Below are positions 4,021 to 62,430 of a stretch of DNA of 64,000 bases, piece by piece. The first letter of the stretch is position 1, and every line of letters begins with the position of its first letter. The DNA is from Caenorhabditis elegans (lineage: Eukaryota; Nematoda; Chromadorea; Rhabditida; Rhabditidae). A model generated the notes under the pieces. That model made no database searches, had not been told where the DNA came from, and saw only the letters and a program-made list of their open reading frames with translations. The DNA lies in assembly GCF_000002985.6 (NCBI RefSeq), contig NC_003279.8:6510001-6574000 (forward strand). The letters run 5' to 3'. The position numbers were made by a program, and so were the translations under genes.

Positions 4021-7307
<3,287 letters not shown>

Positions 7308-20239: not shown

Positions 20240-21960
20240 CTACTTGTTCTGTGGAGTAGCTGGTGTTGGCTCAGCAACTTCAAGGATCGTTTCGTATCCA
20301 CTGGTGATCGACTGATTACGGAAGGCTGGGAATGTCTCCCATGGAGTGTTCAAATCGAATTTACGGAATTCTTGAGCCAATTCAGATGGTTCATAGACGA
20401 CACGCTTCAGCTCTGGATCGTAGCGGACCTCGTTGTATCCCGAAAGTGGATAATCCTTGCGGAATGGGTGACCCTCGAAACCGTAATCAGTGAGAATTCT
20501 TCGAAGATCTGGGTGATTGTTGAACCATACTCCATACATATCGTACACTTCACGCTCAAACCTGAAAAAAATTAGAATAAATATATGGTGACTTGGCCGA
20601 TTTGAGAGGTGAAATCTTTTGAGAAAGTTGCCATAATTTAGGAAACGACTATAATTTGTCAGAAAATAATTAAGTCATAAATGTTCATCAGTTTCTGTTA
20701 GTAATCTTGATTTTTTGGATATTTTTCAGTTTATTACAATAAAAAGAAAAAAGTGGTTTTCAAACGAGTTCTGTCTCATTCGACACATCATGTTTATGCA
20801 AGATTATTACGAAAATTTTTTTGGCTGTTTTTTGCAGACTTTTAATGATTTCACATGTTTTTTGTCGGGGTGGGTAACTTTAAGTTTGTTTCAAAATTTT
20901 TTAAAAATCTGCAGAAATTCGAAAGTCTACTTTTAAATGATTATAATTCTTAAAAGTCTACAAAACCGTCTTTGGAGAAACAACGGATCCGGGAGCAATC
21001 AAAAAATGCATTGGAATAATTTCAGATCGAACTTTTCAGGTTGAAATAGTTTGTTCAATTTTTTTTATATCTTTTCATAGTAATTGTGATTTGGTATTAT
21101 CCATCTTTGATATTAATTTCACTTCTGTTACAATAGTTAAAATAAACTAATTCTTTCAAAAACTTAAATTACATTTAATTAATTAAAAGTTCTTACCAGT
21201 CAGCACCCTTGAAAACTGGAGTGGCAGAATCGATTGGAGCAATTTCATCAGTGTATGTACGAACACGAACTCTGGCGTTGAATCGAACAGAGTAAAGCGA
21301 ATAAATAACTTCAAGACGATTCTTGCGAGTTGGAACATCCATTCCGGTGATGAAGGTTAAGTTGGTGAATTGAGCAGAATGATTTCCCTGGAAATTTAGA
21401 TTTTTTGTTGATAAATCAAGCATTAAACCAAGAAAAAACGGTTTTTGTGCATTTTTTCTCAATTTTAATAAAACGAAGTATAATTTAAAAAAACTGTAAA
21501 ACCGACAATAGTTTCCAGATAAAAAATGGTTATGTACTACTATTGCAGCTGAAAGTCAAAGTGTTACTTTTATTTCAAATTTTTGTGTGTGATTATAATT
21601 AAAGATTTAATACTTACTTTAAGGAAGGAAAGAACTGGAACAACTCCTGATGGATGAATCAAGAGCTCTAACTCGTCTCCGGCTGCAAATTGCACTTTTT
21701 GCACAAACTTTGGCAGGCACTCGGCTGCATACTTTCCAAAATTAGCCAACCGTTCACGTTTGTGTTCGTCGATTTTCCAGATAGTTGCTGAACATTTTTT
21801 GTTAAATTTTGTGTAAAATGCAATTGAAAATTTTACGTTTTTTTGGAGATTCTTTCTTATCGCCAGTCTGGTTGGTCTGGGCAACAGCAGCGGTGGTGGA
21901 AATTGGCGAATTTCGGACAATTTGCCGGGAAACTGCCTGACGGATCACACTACCCAACAT
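20240..21960 (-). CDS. nuo-2: NADH:ubiquinone oxidoreductase 30-kDa subunit (NDUFS3)
   Basis: Core subunit of mitochondrial complex I in the peripheral arm near the quinone site. Four exons (21960-21837, 21787-21618, 21387-21197, 20561-20240) give 268 residues. The start [18 protein letters not shown] is Arg-rich and lacks acidic residues, as expected for a mitochondrial presequence. The family signature is intact: [20 protein letters not shown] followed by [20 protein letters not shown] and SGYNEVRYD. It starts 226 bp after the stop of the KH-domain gene and is followed 167 bp later by the REEP-like gene. A TTGCAG acceptor lies just before the ATG, consistent with trans-splicing in an operon. 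Confidence 0.96.
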
Positions 21961-36495: not shown

Positions 36496-37344
36496 TAATC
36501 AAATTGTAACGTTTCGTTTTTTCTCTCGTTCTCTTATAATTTTATATAACTAGACGTTCAATAGATACAAATTAGAATAAATTTTCAAACAACATTTTCC
36601 CTTAGAACACCAACATGAATCCATATTTATCAAATGAGAATATCGAATTAACCCTCGCAATAAGGAGGAGAGGTACATTTTCAGGCCTTCTGTTTAAATT
36701 CGGCGTCAATTAGCTTCGCGATGGTGCTCAATTGAATGTTGGAAGTTCCTTCGTAAATCGTTCCAATTTTACAGTCACGATAGTATTTCTCGACGGGGAA
36801 TTCTTTGGTGATGCAAAGAGCTTCGCCATTGCTGCCTCACGAACAAATGGTAATCCGTGTTGCTTCATACGAGCAGCATTGTAAACCAACAGACGAGCAG
36901 CTTCGATTTCAGTTCTGACTTGAGCAATTTGATGTTGCATTCCCTAGAAGTCTATTGTATATATATATTTCTCTGTCATGTTTTATGTCTCACCTGGAAA
37001 TCAATAATTCTCTGCCCAAACTGTTCTCTTTGTTGAAGATATGGAATTGTCTGATCAAAACATCCTTGAGCTAATCCAAGCATTTGAGCTCCAATTCCGA
37101 TACGACCAGCATTCAAATATTCAATTGCGTACTTGTAACCTTTAAACATTGTGTACTTAAATTGGAATTATTAATTCTATAGTCAACCTTTTCCAAATTC
37201 TCCAAGAATTGCCGACTTGTGAACGCGTACATTATCAAAATGAAGTGGGCACGTAGAAGATGAACGAACTCCCAATTTGTCCTCCTGAACTTGATGATTA
37301 TTACGTCCATTTTAAAGCGGAACCGCAAAACTCGATTTGTTGCG

Positions 37345-37600: not shown

Positions 37601-38149
37601 GCGAAAAGTCACAATAAATAACTCTGGAAAATGGTTATAAAAGTTAACTTACATGCTTTCCAATGGTAAATCCTTTAGTACCCTTTTCAACAATGAAACA
37701 TGTAATTCCTTTGTATCCTTTACTTGGATCCGCATTAGCAAACACCAAGAATGTTTCCGATTGCTCCGAATTTGAGATCCACATCTTTGATCCATTAATC
37801 ACATAGTCATCTCCATCTTTCTTTGCAGTTGTTTTCAATGCAAATGCATCAGATCCAGATCCGGTCTCGGAAAGAGCAAATGATCCAACTGATGAAGTAT
37901 AACATTTTGGAAGATATTTCTCTTTTTGTTTTTCTGTTCCAAGTTCAATAATTAAAGGAATAAAGAGTGTATTATGAACATCAACCATTGCTCCAACCGA
38001 TGCATCAACTTTTGAAATTTCTTCAATTACGAGAGCAGCATCGAAAAACGTTGCTCCAGGGCCACCGTACTTTTCAGGAACTTCGATGCCCATCAGCTGA
38101 GGTTAACTTTAAACATTTTCAAAATACATTATTACCCAGTTGCTATACT

Positions 38150-38295
38150 ATGTAGACGTCGCGCAAAAAAGTATGCGCCTTTAAGAAGTACAGTAATACA
38201 TTTCTCAAAAATGGGTTACTGTACTAATTTGAAGGCGCATCGTTTTGCGCAGTTAATTAAAAAATACATTTGTTTCGTTGCGAGACCGTAAAGTG
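38150..38295. repeat. Dispersed foldback repeat in an acdh-4 intron
   Basis: GCGCAAAAAAGTATGCGCCTTTAAG.AGTACAGTA at about 38161-38194 faces GGGTTACTGTACTAATTTGAAGGCGCATC...GCGAGACCG at about 38213-38290. The arrangement is like the repeat copies in other introns of this window. Confidence 0.7.
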
Positions 38296-38800
38296 TCGCA
38301 ACTGGATAATTACTTTCATATAATACCCCATTTTCAAAGCATCCATTGATCACAGCTGGAGTCATTTCCGAAGTTCGATCCATTTCACGAACCAGAGGTT
38401 TTATCACTGTATCCGCAAATTGACGAACTTAAATTGCACTATTTATTCTCTGAATCTTTTAATTCTTCAGTACAAACCAGTTTTAACGAATCCGGTTTCC
38501 TGCTCCGACAATACTTGCAATGGATGTGGAATATCATCCTCATTACGTGGTTTTGAAGATAACAATGATGACGTGCTAGAGATCAAGCGTCTGCATGAGC
38601 TCAAACGGAGTTGGTGGACGAGAAGAGACATTTGGAAGAATTCAAAAGAAGGAACTACATTTTTAAACATTGGAAAAAGGTTTGTGTGATCATGGAGGAG
38701 AATTATGGTCACGCTTTTATATTTAAAAAAGTTTTCAATAGGGCAACAAAAACAGTGAAAAAGTAACAATAAAAGTAACAATGAGAAAAAAGATTTAATT

Positions 38801-40350
38801 TTATTTGAAGATCATATTCATCAATTCGCTACTCTCTGTGTTAACATGTTTTGATCTTTCCTTCTTCACCTTCACAACCTTCTTCTGCTGGACATCTCGC
38901 TGGAATTTATCCCACTTTCCACCGGAAGCTGTAACCTTTGCTTCAAGCTTTCTCAAATGTTTTCCTTTCTCAATTTGTTCTTCAAAGTGAGCAGCAATTC
39001 GACGAGCCTTGAAAAGAAGAATATTAATGCAAAGTGGCCAATACCGGGGGTTACTGTACCTGTGCGACTTCCACATTCATTCGTCGTTTTTCCACTTCTT
39101 TTTCATATTGTAATTGTTCCATAAGATGTACCCATTTGAAACTAGAAAAATAAAAATTCATGTATATTTTCATGAATAACTTACCCAGATAAATATCTAA
39201 TATTCCATAACATGCTCGACACTGGATCCTTATTCTTTCCACCAATCGGAGTGTTATCAATTTGTTCAGCAATTGCTTTTGCAATCTTTTTCTTTTTCAA
39301 CTCCATCCATCCTTCTGAATATAGATATTGCGGATTTTTCGAGTGCTTGTTACGCTAAAAATATAATTTTTATGATTTCATTTGAAAAAAAAATAAGCTA
39401 CCGCAAGGAAGATTCGACCAACTTGTCCAGGGCATCGCTTTTCAAAGTATTCACGCATTCGAACCACGTTGTATTTTGGAGGAATTGTTGAGAAGAAGAC
39501 AACCTGAAAATTACTTTTTTTTATCTGTGGCCTCTAAAATAGTCTAAAATTATATTTTATCAACAATCCGAGAAGGGATCTTTTGAAGTTAACTAATCCT
39601 TCTGAAGAATTACTTAAAATTTTCTAACATTCTGATTGTGAGCAGAATATTTTTTGTTTTTTTAAACAAAATTAATTTTTAAAAGCGAAAAAAACCTGGA
39701 AAATTCTTTTAACCTGTCGGTAACTCAAAACTCATAAATTTTCATTAAAATTAGGAAAAAATTGGTATTTTTTTGCGCTTTAGACTCGGAATAAATTCTA
39801 TACAGAAAAACGACACTCAGAATTGTAACTGTGCAAAGTGTTTCTATTTAAAAAATGCAAAAATGTTCGTTATAAGCTCTGCTTAAAAAAAACGATTTTT
39901 CATGTTTCCTTTTCGATTAAAAAATGTTTCGCTTTTTTTTATTTTTTCAATTACGAAAAAAACGTTTTTTTTCTAGGATTCAACCCTAATTCTCAGGTAT
40001 TTTCGAATAAAAAAGTTAAAAAAAAACTTACACCAGTCTTCTTTTGTTTTTGTTCTGGATCCTCAAAAGTCTCCATTTCATCATCTTCTGATTCTTCTGT
40101 TTTAATTTCAGAATCGTCCAGATTTCCAGCTTCATCTTCATTATTATCTGTTTCAATGCTTTCCTCTTTTGGTTCAAGCATTTCTGAAAATTTTGATATT
40201 TTCGGATAAAAATTGCGAAATCAATTTATAGTGCAAGCATTAGTTCGAATATTCACCTTTTTCCTCTTCCATTTTCATATCTTCTTCTACAACAGGCTTT
40301 TTGATCGATTTTCTCACAATTTTCTTCTTCTTTTTTGGAATAGGCGCCAT
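38801..40350 (-). CDS. ABT1/ESF2-like ribosome-biogenesis RNA-binding protein, 268 aa
   Basis: Six exons (40350-40257, 40183-40032, 39503-39402, 39354-39185, 39141-39060, 39007-38801) join in frame. The N-terminus is very basic (MAPIPKKKKKIVRK), then comes a long acidic stretch. An RRM-like core follows, TGVVFFSTIPPKYNVVRMRE with QVGRIFLAR and YSEGWMELKKKKIAKAIAE, then the signature WNIRYLSGFKWVHLMEQLQY and an Arg/Lys-rich helical tail. This order matches human Activator of basal transcription 1 and yeast Esf2, nucleolar factors for 18S rRNA maturation. It starts 336 bp after the stop of spg-20 and ends 131 bp before acdh-4, all on one strand, so cotranscription is likely. Confidence 0.88.
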
Positions 40351-40685: not shown

Positions 40686-42612
40686 CTAGACAGCCTTCTT
40701 GAGCTCCAAAGCTGGCACTTCTTGATCTAAACGACTTCCTTTTCTACTGTGATGCAAATCCGATACCATTTGAATTCCAGCTTTTCTTGCCATCCTTCCA
40801 GCAACACTTCTTGGTCCCAAATCCCATAGTTGAGCAGCTGCAAGTGTTCCGTGTCCGGCAGCGAAAAGAGCATGATGAGTGGTATCTGATGCATCGTCTC
40901 CGTACTTGAGTTTCACGTTCTGTACAGTTTGATTCGCAATACTTCGGCATAGATGACGGGAACCATCTTCCAAACTCATCCAAACTGTGGCAACACCAGT
41001 GATTCCGCCTCCAAGAATTTCTGAAAATAGTAAAATAAAAATTATTTTATGGAAACCAGTTATAAGCCATACCAATGGTTCCGGATACGAGTCCTCCACT
41101 TTTTCCATCTCCAAATCGTCTTTGTGCACTATCTGCCAATTTCTTTCCCATCGAAACGCCCATATCTCCGATTTTGTCCACTGAAAATTTGAATTTTTAA
41201 ATCCCTAATACTTGAAAAAATATTTGGCCAACTTTTCGTGTCCAAAATATTTTTCAGAATCTCTTCTCTACAAACTTCTCTCTTAAAGTCGAAAACTTAC
41301 ACAAATATCTTGTGCACTTAGCGACTGTCTTTGTTCCTTTATGCATATAAACTACACTTCCTTTGATAACTGGAGACACTTGCATTGGTTTGTCCGTTGC
41401 GATAAGTGTTGTTCGATACTGTTCTCCATTATCTTCAACTCTTGAAATCACTCGTACGGTTGTTGTTTCAACTCCCCAAGCTATTTTTTGACCTCCTTTG
41501 ATCAGAAAATTCGAAATTGTTGTAGAAATCCTATTCTTCTCTTCTTTACTCAGTTCAGTAGATGGTTCAGCTTGTTCTTTGAAATCCGTGAATTCACGGA
41601 GAACAATGTGAAGTTCTTCAATTAATCTTCGCTCAATGTCTGATGATAGTAGGATTGCAACAGTCATGTCTGAAAATTACAAATTGAAATCTTTGAATGT
41701 CTGAATTTTTCCCACTTGGATTTTCTGGAGTCGGATTGGCAACCAAATATGCTCCGAATTCGTTACGAAGCACTGGAGTCTTTGCACCCATCAATGGATA
41801 TGCCCAAGGCCCAACTTGCATGAATGCAAGTGTATCTGAAGAAGCTCCACCATCAGTTGGCTGAGGAAAACGGAGAATTTGAAGAGATGTTGGAGCAGTT
41901 GGAGCAGTTGTTTTTTCCCCCTGAAAATATAATAAAATTGTAGAAATATTTAGAAAACTATCTATAAAAGAAATTTAAACAAAAGAAGAAAACACTTACA
42001 TCAATTGTGAAGAGTTGCACACCTTCCGGCAAAAAATAAATCAAGTCAGCTTCCTGAGATCCAAAGGAGTCGAGCTGCATTCTGATTGCTTCTTTCTGAA
42101 AAAGGAAAATGAATTTAATTAATTAAAATGAGTAAATACCTCGTTTTCAACACTTTCTTCAGCTTCCTTGATTTTCTTTGGAGTTGGTTGCTTTGGTCCT
42201 TCCTTTTTCAGAACGTTGATTCTATAAACTTTTTTTTTTTTCAAATAAAAAGTCGAAAAAAATAATGTGAACTTTAAAGGTACTTTTTCGCGGTTTTATC
42301 AACGTTTTTAATTCAAAATCACTCACCTATGCTGGACACTTGATTTTGATTCTTGTAACATTTTCCACATTTCACTTTTCCTCGCATTTTTCATTTTCTC
42401 TCCTTCGACGATCAAATTCAATCCTTTTTCGTACATTGCGAGAGTATTTTCCTTAAAAAAACAATTATTTTCAAAGTTTTCATTCAAAATAATAAACATA
42501 CCCAATCATTAACCTCATCGTAGCATAATCCCTGTTCAATTGATGCATATGCTCCAGAAAATACTGCATCAACCTGAGCAGTATCAGGAATTCTCATAAA
42601 TATCGAGAACAT
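40686..42612 (-). CDS. spg-20: Spartin homologue (MIT and senescence domains), ~476 aa
   Basis: Eight exons (42612-42502, 42451-42327, 42221-42140, 42095-42000, 41920-41716, 41669-41301, 41180-41073, 41020-40686) join in frame. The N-terminal ~100 residues fit an MIT-type helical bundle (AYASIEQGLCYDEVNDW, then AMYEKGLNLIVEGEK). A middle plant-related senescence region (SDTLAFMQVGPWAYPLMGAK) and a C-terminal Gly/Ala-rich senescence domain (EILGGGITGVATVWMSLEDG, HHALFAAGHGTLAAAQLWD) follow. Spartin in mammals acts at lipid droplets and endosomes, and its loss causes Troyer-type spastic paraplegia. The worm protein is shorter than the human one (about 666 aa). A TTTTCAG acceptor lies two bases before the start, consistent with trans-splicing. 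Confidence 0.9.
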
Positions 42613-59608: not shown

Positions 59609-62430
59609 ATGTTCGTAGCCCTGGGCGCTCAAATTTATCGGCAATATTTCGGACGACGCGGTGAGCGGTTTTTGGATTCTTGTTGTTCTCTTTTTTAATT
59701 TTTTTCTCACTGGTTATATTTTAAATTTCTCGAAACAAAATTGATCGATGATCAAACTTCTTATTTGATAACGAATCAACAGTTTTGATTTAATTCCATT
59801 TTTCATAATCTCGTCATTTTGTTTTGCCTTTTTTTTAATTGTCCTTTTTTCTTTCTAATACCTATTTTTATATTAATTGATTGCTAATGTTTTAATTTTA
59901 ATGGAGGTTACATTTAAAAGTTTTGCTCCGAATATATTTGAAAGAAATTCCTTCACAAGCATCATCTAGTATTTTTATTCTTTTTATATTTTGTGCGAGA
60001 AATCACAATCCCCCTATAACAGCTAATAGTTTTCGCCTTTAAACTCAAAAATTTTTCAATTTGCATCATATTCCGATATTTTTCAGGAATGGCGATGGCA
60101 AATAACAGTTCGGTGGCCAATAAGGTCTGTCTCATCGTTATTGATGGATGGGGAGTTTCTGAAGATCCTTACGGTAACGCTATTCTCAACGCACAGACAC
60201 CAGTTATGGACAAGCTGTGTTCGGGTAAGATTTTATTTATTTCAAAATTGTTAACCCAAGAACATTTTTCCAGGCAATTGGGCTCAAATTGAGGCACATG
60301 GTCTTCATGTTGGTCTCCCAGAAGGATTGATGGGAAATTCGGAAGTCGGACATTTGAACATCGGAGCCGGACGTGTTATCTATCAAGACATTGTTCGTAT
60401 TAATCTGGCAGTCAAGAACAACAAATTTGTATGCTTCCAATATTATTTCAGAATATTATATTTCGTAAATTTTAGGTGACTAATGAGAGCTTGGTGGATG
60501 CTTGCGATCGTGCTAAAAACGGAAATGGACGTCTTCATCTGGCCGGACTTGTTTCTGACGGAGGTGTTCATTCTCATATTGGTAATATTCATTTATTTAT
60601 TTTCAATTTATGATTTTTCTCATTTCAGATCACATGTTTGCTTTGGTTAAGGCCATCAAAGAGCTCGGAGTTCCAGAACTTTACCTTCATTTCTACGGAG
60701 ATGGTCGTGATACTTCTCCAAACAGTGGAGTTGGATTCCTTGAACAAACCCTCGAGTTCTTGGAGAAAACTACTGGGTTAGAATAATGTGATAATTTATG
60801 GGGTTATTCAAGTAGTGTCGGAAAATTAAAAAGTGTAGAAAAATTACGCCACAACTGTATTCAAGTATATAAAAACATGTATTTAAATACATTTGTGACG
60901 TCACAAATATATTTAAATACATTTCGCTACATTACTTGAATAACCCCATTAGGAAACATGTTTAAAAATATTTTCAGATATGGAAAACTAGCTACTGTAG
61001 TTGGCCGCTACTATGCTATGGATCGCGATAACAGATGGGAGCGTATCAATGTTGCATACGAGGCAATGATTGGAGGTGTTGGAGAGACTTCCGATGAGGC
61101 TGGGGTATGATTTTAGCGTATAAACTGATTAACAATTCAAAAGACGAAGAATGAACAGTTTTGGATTTCGTTTAATTATAATTTTCTAGGTATCAAAAAT
61201 CATTTACTAAATATAAAGTAGTTTTCTTCCGTACAATGTATGATATACCAAGATGCAAACTTTTCACTTTAAATCAACAAAAATTCAAATTCATTTCAAT
61301 TAAAAATGTTTCCGAGAGAAATTCGAATTCTAATTTCAGCAAGTTTAAATAATATCTAAAATTATCATTTTCCAGGTTGTTGAAGTTGTTCGCAAGCGTT
61401 ACGCTGCTGATGAAACAGACGAATTCTTGAAGCCAATCATTCTTCAAGGAGAGAAAGGACGTGTTCAAAATGACGATACAATCATCTTCTTCGACTACCG
61501 TGCTGATCGTATGCGTGAGATTTCTGCAGCAATGGGAATGGATCGTTACAAGGATTGCAATTCGAAGTTAGCTCATCCATCAAATCTTCAAGTATATGGA
61601 ATGACTCAATACAAAGCCGAGTTCCCATTCAAATCGCTGTTCCCGCCAGCATCGAACAAAAATGTATTGGCTGAGTGGCTCGCCGAGCAAAAAGTTTCGC
61701 AATTTCATTGTGCGGAAACCGAAAAATACGCTCACGTTACATTTTTCTTCAATGGAGGACTTGAAAAACAATTTGAGGGAGAAGAAAGGTGTTTAGTGCC
61801 CAGTCCAAAGGTAATACTTTGATGATATAACTTCGAAAATTGAATATTTCCAGGTCGCAACTTACGATCTTCAACCAGAAATGTCTGCGGCCGGCGTTGC
61901 TGACAAAATGATTGAACAACTCGAGGCTGGAACTCATCCATTCATTATGTGCAACTTTGCTCCACCAGATATGGTCGGGCATACGGGAGTCTATGAAGCT
62001 GCTGTCAAGGCCTGTGAAGCTACTGATATCGCAATCGGAAGAATCTATGAAGCAACTCAAAAGCACGGATACTCACTTATGGTTACTGCTGATCACGGAA
62101 ATGCTGAAAAGATGAAGGCTCCAGATGGTGGAAAACACACTGCTCACACATGTTACCGTGTTCCACTCACTTTGAGCCATCCAGGATTCAAATTTGTCGA
62201 TGTGAGTTTTTGTCAAACGTTTGAAATTTTTATTTAAAAAAAAACAGAAACCCATATGTTAAATGAAAATATTAATTTACAAACGGGTGTAAATAGCTAT
62301 TCACTTCACACGTTTACAGCCAGCCGACCGTCATCCGGCCCTTTGTGATGTTGCTCCAACAGTTCTCGCTATTATGGGACTCCCTCAACCAGCTGAAATG
62401 ACTGGGGTCTCGATTGTTCAGAAGATCTAG
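59609..62430 (+). CDS. ipgm-1: Cofactor-independent phosphoglycerate mutase
   Basis: Interconverts 3- and 2-phosphoglycerate in glycolysis without 2,3-bisphosphoglycerate, a type absent from mammals. Nine exons (59609-59660, 60087-60224, 60274-60428, 60476-60581, 60629-60776, 60978-61104, 61376-61810, 61854-62201, 62320-62430) give 539 residues, the known long form. Starting at the Met in exon 2 (60090) gives the 521-residue short form, so an alternative promoter or trans-splice is likely. Active-site blocks are VIDGWG, the Ser in [54 protein letters not shown] and [10 protein letters not shown], which supply the metal ligands and phosphoserine. The intron between exons 5 and 6 contains a MITE. 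Confidence 0.97.
60798..60949. repeat. MITE with 17-bp perfect terminal repeats in an ipgm-1 intron
   Basis: ATGGGGTTATTCAAGTA at 60798-60814 is exactly inverted at 60933-60949. The inside holds a second palindrome, ATTTGTGACGTCACAAAT at 60889-60906, and repeated TATTTAAATACATTT blocks. It is 152 bp and non-coding. Confidence 0.85.

What the first reader, a model, noticed from the sequence alone, without database searches (positions are those of the whole stretch)
36681..36943. acdh-4 reads as frameshifted by a small internal deletion that removes the active-site end from frame
The last exon runs [11 protein letters not shown] and then leaves the acyl-CoA dehydrogenase pattern. The expected ~18-residue block (EVA ... 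GGVGF) is absent, and [12 protein letters not shown] ... [10 protein letters not shown] continues one base out of frame to a family-like stop at 36681. No intron can fit, because the two parts abut at about 36809-36815. A loss of one base plus a multiple of three, about 55 bp, would explain both the missing block and the frame shift. The catalytic Glu of IYEGT falls in the out-of-frame part, so the enzyme should be dead unless this is an error or a strain-specific allele. Upstream exons look intact, implying a recent event.
Basis: partly seen in the sequence, partly recalled or inferred. Interest (0 to 1): 0.75.

Follow-up and report, generated by a model that had tools for sequence, protein, structure and literature searches.

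The report
Worm enzyme gene with 58-base deletion
In this stretch of roundworm DNA, a gene for an enzyme that breaks down small branched acids has lost about 58 bases near its end, so the catalytic end is read in the wrong frame and the enzyme is probably dead; why it was lost, and in which worms, could not be settled here.

Summary
A six-exon short/branched-chain acyl-CoA dehydrogenase gene lies on the minus strand (38670-36681). It reads cleanly to ...[11 protein letters not shown] (TCA, 36811-36809). The family's C-terminus ([12 protein letters not shown]...[10 protein letters not shown]...) then starts at ACC 36809-36807, one frame back, sharing base 36809. SBCAD of PDB 2jif and 80 of 80 bacterial relatives have exactly 19 residues between these points, so 57+1 = 58 bp are missing, not about 55. 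The missing piece was not found elsewhere in the window, and no single GT-AG intron that I enumerated brings it back. The actual frame stops at 36728 after a 26-residue tail, without the catalytic Glu. Both halves are otherwise well preserved (172/274 and 30/38 identical to 2jif), which fits a recent single lesion. The window is C. elegans (145/145 residues of an iPGM exon identical to PDB 5kgn); neighbouring genes agree with the name acdh-4. Other isolates, sister species, paralogues and RNA reads were out of reach, so a real allele and a clone or assembly error are not separated, and "strain-specific" is untested. Ordinary kind: a loss-of-function allele or young pseudogene in a multi-copy enzyme family.

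The parts
38478..38670 (-). exon 1 of the acyl-CoA dehydrogenase gene (ATG at 38670; a second in-frame ATG at 38631)
   Evidence: GT-AG intron and open spliced frame; choice of start codon is inference
38327..38427 (-). exon 2
   Evidence: spliced frame open, phases agree
37653..38096 (-). exon 3 (N-terminal and middle domains)
   Evidence: PF02771 E 2.2e-21, PF02770 E 3e-21; aligned to 2jif
37188..37284 (-). exon 4
36994..37139 (-). exon 5
36809..36943 (-). last exon up to the lesion, in frame with exons 1-5 (ends ...[11 protein letters not shown])
36807..36811 (-). deletion junction: TCA (36811-36809) and ACC (36809-36807) share base 36809; 57+1 = 58 bp missing by comparison with the family
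36681..36809 (-). family C-terminus ([12 protein letters not shown]...IYEGT...) in the -1 frame, stop at 36681
   Evidence: PF00441 E 1.9e-8; 30/38 identical to 2jif
36728..36808 (-). aberrant in-frame tail [26 protein letters not shown] (26 residues) and actual stop codon
   Evidence: no PDB match up to E 1 for the tail

Best explanation
It is a loss-of-function allele of a C. elegans short/branched-chain acyl-CoA dehydrogenase gene (acdh-4 by position). About 58 bp of the last exon were lost, most simply in one event. The transcript should still be made and spliced, because all five introns keep GT-AG ends. Translation leaves the family frame after MAKLFAS, adds 26 unrelated residues and stops 47 nt before the family stop, inside the last exon. 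The product lacks the conserved GGxG segment and the IYEGT catalytic Glu, so it should have no dehydrogenase activity. Related genes (acdh-1, acdh-3 and others) could cover the step. Shown: frame break, 58-bp shortfall against the family, preserved halves. Inferred: one event, dead enzyme, stable mRNA, redundancy, true allele rather than error.
For: Two halves of one Pfam domain in two frames with an 18-position hole. A gap of exactly 19 residues in 2jif and in 80 of 80 bacterial relatives. Of 23 columns with at least 97% agreement in the 81-row C-terminal alignment, the gene keeps 20 of 20 outside the hole and lacks the 3 inside it (GG.G). No displaced copy of the missing piece found in the window. 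No enumerated intron restores it. All five introns GT-AG with an open frame. One paper shows RNA-seq expression levels of acdh-4, unchanged by temperature (PMC6508741, passages).
Against: No second copy, isolate, sister species or read data to show that the bases are truly absent from the animals; a clone or assembly deletion would look the same. In an RNAi screen acdh-4 is listed among genes whose depletion affects development of phb-2 mutants (PMC5875015, passage). If that effect is specific, the gene still does something; silencing of a paralogue would also explain it.
Confidence: 0.75

Rival explanations
1. Sequence, clone or assembly error: the animal's gene is intact and 58 bp were lost in cloning or assembly.
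For: The rest of the gene is well kept on both sides of the junction, as expected if there is no real lesion.
Against: A clean 58-bp loss is unusual for base-calling error, and the window holds no ambiguous bases (0 N). Otherwise not testable here.
Confidence: 0.17
2. The protein is rescued at RNA level by alternative splicing, or by a frameshift during translation, and keeps a function.
For: 59 hypothetical GT-AG introns (donor in exons 3-6, at least 35 nt, one extra intron at a time) put IYEGT back in frame; the best score 9 on my crude consensus count, as high as real introns of this gene (8-12), so the score does not rule them out.
Against: All 59 end in the last exon and skip at least 35 nt more of the gene (products 138-402 residues), and none can restore the 19 residues with the GGxG segment. 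GC donors were not enumerated. No slippery heptamer is apparent at the junction by eye.
Confidence: 0.04
3. Old pseudogene fixed in the species, or a family variant that lost the end long ago.
For: Other C. elegans family members exist that could make it dispensable (PMC9388463, passages).
Against: The out-of-frame end is at least as well conserved as the rest (30/38 against 172/274 identical to 2jif), and there is no second frame lesion in the six exons.
Confidence: 0.04

Closest known systems
Short/branched-chain acyl-CoA dehydrogenase, PDB 2jif (human ACADSB; organism recalled)
   Same: Same domain order; 172/274 residues identical before the junction and 30/38 after it
   Different: 2jif has 19 residues (348-366) that are absent here, and its catalytic end is in frame
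C. elegans acdh-1 and acdh-3 (ACADSB-type paralogues)
   Same: Described as ACADSB-like copies (PMC9388463, passages)
   Different: Said there to be functional; their sequences could not be compared here
Natural or laboratory loss-of-function alleles and structural variants of C. elegans
   Same: Variants over 30 bp arise at about 0.03 per genome per generation (PMC13322394, passages); 4,334 variants over 50 bp annotated between N2 and CB4856 assemblies (PMC10634987, abstract passage)
   Different: Neither passage set names this one; 'acdh' does not occur in PMC10634987

Membership tests
Acyl-CoA dehydrogenase, short/branched-chain type (by descent) | N-terminal, middle and C-terminal domains in order | tested here: met
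   PF02771 and PF02770 in exon 3, PF00441 in the last exon but split over two frames; best PDB match 2jif E 1.2e-126 with the two parts joined in the query
Acyl-CoA dehydrogenase, working enzyme | Catalytic Glu of IYEGT (role recalled) in the same reading frame as the rest | tested here: not met
   IYEGT lies in the frame ending at 36681; the spliced frame ends at 36728
Acyl-CoA dehydrogenase, working enzyme | Conserved GGxG segment before TK.(F/Y)PVE (cofactor contact, recalled) | tested here: not met
   Columns 109, 110 and 112 are G in 81, 79 and 81 of 81 rows, 2jif included; absent in this gene
Unitary or polymorphic pseudogene | Disabling lesion in an otherwise intact gene, no parent copy beside it | tested here: met
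   tblastn at E 0.01 finds only this acdh gene in the window; the rest of the genome was not searchable
Unitary or polymorphic pseudogene | Intact orthologue in related strains or species | not testable with these tools
   no genome held for the window
Gene acdh-4 (T10E9.9) | Position between nuo-2 (T10E9.7) and spg-20 (F57B10.9) | tested here: inconclusive
   PF00329 (complex I 30-kDa subunit) at 20246-20674 and PF06911 (senescence domain, as in spartin, recalled) at 40689-41204. The abstract of PMC4482654 equates F57B10.9 with spg-20; T10E9.7 and nuo-2 occur together in 4 of the 5 papers listed, the equation being recalled. That T10E9.9 is acdh-4 is recalled.

The most novel reading that the evidence does not exclude
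The sequenced C. elegans strain, possibly the laboratory reference, carries a derived null allele of acdh-4 that wild isolates lack. Branched-chain acyl-CoA use in the laboratory worm then differs from the wild, or the tail-altered protein persists as a catalytically dead partner in mixed tetramers with its paralogues.
Probability: 0.2. Interest if true: 0.5.

Novelty: new member of a known kind. Interest (0 to 1): 0.3.

Why it matters
If the deletion is real in the strain used as reference, acdh-4 should not be counted as an active dehydrogenase in worm metabolic models or in RNAi screens, and crosses with isolates that carry an intact copy would test what the gene does. If it is an error, the sequence needs a correction. 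Either way it is one gene in a redundant family.

Tried and rejected
Displaced missing block: a six-frame search of the window (open stretches of 15 residues or more) with a profile of the block and its flanks (81 rows) gave, below E 10, weak edges of the two known halves and five other hits (E 2.5-9.9) that look like chance; the GG.G[FY] motif occurs only in the glycine repeats at 4091-5282. A paralogue in the window to serve as template: none found at E 0.01. Rescue by splicing: 59 candidates, none restores the block. Repeats behind the deletion: one search lists no repeat at the junction, but this cannot test the idea, since one copy would have gone with the deleted piece. A TCA repeat of three bases (Ser codon TCA; tTCAcc if the lost last codon was TTC) is possible and rests on a guessed codon. 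Literature: 'acdh-4' as a whole word is in 2 held papers, T10E9.9 in 0; the passages seen are not about a lesion. The family-history paper by Swigonova 2009 is not held (DOI recalled). Searches on reference errors and N2 loss-of-function alleles listed no paper whose title or abstract start concerns this gene. The bacterial promoter/terminator scan of 36600-36700 found nothing and does not apply to a worm. Structure prediction was not run: it would not separate the main rivals.

Full report
What is there. On the minus strand between 38670 and 36681 lies a six-exon gene for an acyl-CoA dehydrogenase. Five GT-AG introns (50, 230, 368, 48 and 50 nt) join into one open frame. The frame reads through the N-terminal and middle domains (PF02771 E 2.2e-21, PF02770 E 3e-21) and into the C-terminal domain as far as ...[13 protein letters not shown], whose last codon TCA occupies 36811-36809. 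From there the frame gives [26 protein letters not shown] and a stop at 36728. The family's true end, [42 protein letters not shown], starts with ACC at 36809-36807, one base back, and stops at 36681.

How much is missing. SBCAD of PDB 2jif (human, organism recalled), the best match among solved structures (E 1.2e-126), has EIAGQTTSKCIEWMGGVGY, residues 348-366, between the two parts. One scan of bacterial genomes found 132 stretches that encode a relative, of which the best 80 were kept. All 80 of 80 span the gap with exactly 19 residues. They are bacterial and chosen by similarity, so they show the family's constancy, not the worm's own ancestor. Since the two worm parts share base 36809, the shortfall is 57+1 = 58 bp.

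Is it more than chance. Each half matches the family alone, in different frames: PF00441 E 2.8e-10 and 1.9e-8. The halves are 172/274 and 30/38 identical to 2jif. Of the 23 columns with at least 97% agreement in the 81-row C-terminal alignment, the worm gene keeps 20 of 20 outside the hole and lacks the 3 inside it.

Could it be rescued. The missing piece was not found elsewhere in the 64-kb window: a profile of the block gave only weak edges of the two known halves and a few hits at E 2.5 or worse. Of hypothetical single introns with a GT in exons 3-6 and an AG at least 35 nt downstream, 59 put IYEGT in frame. All 59 end in the last exon and skip further sequence. My consensus count does not separate these from real introns (best 9; real 8-12), so I rely on the fact that none can restore the 19 residues.

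Which organism and gene. A 145-residue stretch of the frame at 61349-61822 is 145 of 145 identical to PDB 5kgn, an iPGM that I recall as that of C. elegans. The window also holds a complex I 30-kDa subunit exon (PF00329 E 3.9e-20, 20246-20674), a senescence-domain exon as in spartin (PF06911 E 6.3e-17, 40689-41204), a zinc-knuckle DEAD-box helicase and a trehalase. F57B10.9 is spg-20, the spartin gene (PMC4482654, abstract). T10E9.7 occurs with nuo-2 in 4 of the 5 papers listed; that they are the same gene is recalled. A branched-chain dehydrogenase between them fits acdh-4 = T10E9.9, also recalled. Which strain was sequenced cannot be told.

How it most likely works. A deletion in the last exon shifts the frame. 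The stop at 36728 is only 47 nt before the family stop and in the last exon, so I expect a stable message and a protein with a 26-residue foreign tail, lacking the GGxG segment and the catalytic Glu (roles recalled from the family). How the deletion arose is open. A TCA repeat of three bases would fit if the lost last codon was TTC; the repeat search cannot test it, since one copy would be gone. Large variants are common enough in this worm: variants over 30 bp arise at about 0.03 per genome per generation (PMC13322394, passages).

Literature. acdh-4 as a whole word is in 2 held papers. One lists it, with acdh-3, among genes whose depletion affects development of phb-2 mutants (PMC5875015, one passage), which speaks mildly against a dead gene or reflects silencing of a paralogue. 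The other takes it as a randomly selected gene whose RNA-seq expression did not change with temperature (PMC6508741, two passages). A healthspan study says C. elegans has multiple functional ACADSB copies and names acdh-1 and acdh-3, not acdh-4 (PMC9388463, passages). That agrees with acdh-4 being non-functional but does not show it. PMC10167481 (passages) places acdh-3 and acdh-9 with isoleucine and valine degradation. I found no statement of this lesion in the listings and passages; most subscription papers, supplements and WormBase are outside what I could search.

Verdict. The reading as a disabling deletion is well supported by sequence. Whether it is an allele, a fixed loss or an error is not settled. 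It is an ordinary kind of event in a redundant enzyme family, of moderate interest if it sits in the reference strain.

Noticed in passing
window 38631-38803: The frame of the gene upstream ends at 38801, only 130 bp before the first ATG of acdh-4 (169 bp before the second), the spacing of C. elegans operons (recalled), so acdh-4 may be a downstream operon gene. Two frames of that neighbour gave no Pfam match.
   Followed up: partly
window 38131-38310: Intron 2 holds nested imperfect inverted repeats (arms of 19, 18 and 17 nt, 83-88% complementary), about 180 bp in all, like a small palindromic mobile-element remnant inside the gene.
   Followed up: partly
window 4091-6725: Long run of ten-residue glycine-rich repeats ([10 protein letters not shown]) ahead of a zinc-knuckle DEAD-box helicase, GLH-like (name recalled).
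   Followed up: partly
L001-L020: The closest 20 bacterial relatives (55-61% identical over the compared C-terminal stretch) are Balneolaceae or Balneolales, Myxococcales and a few others, set apart from the other 60 (39-48%); this recalls the proposed myxococcal contribution to mitochondrial beta-oxidation (PMC3131387, listing only).
   Followed up: no
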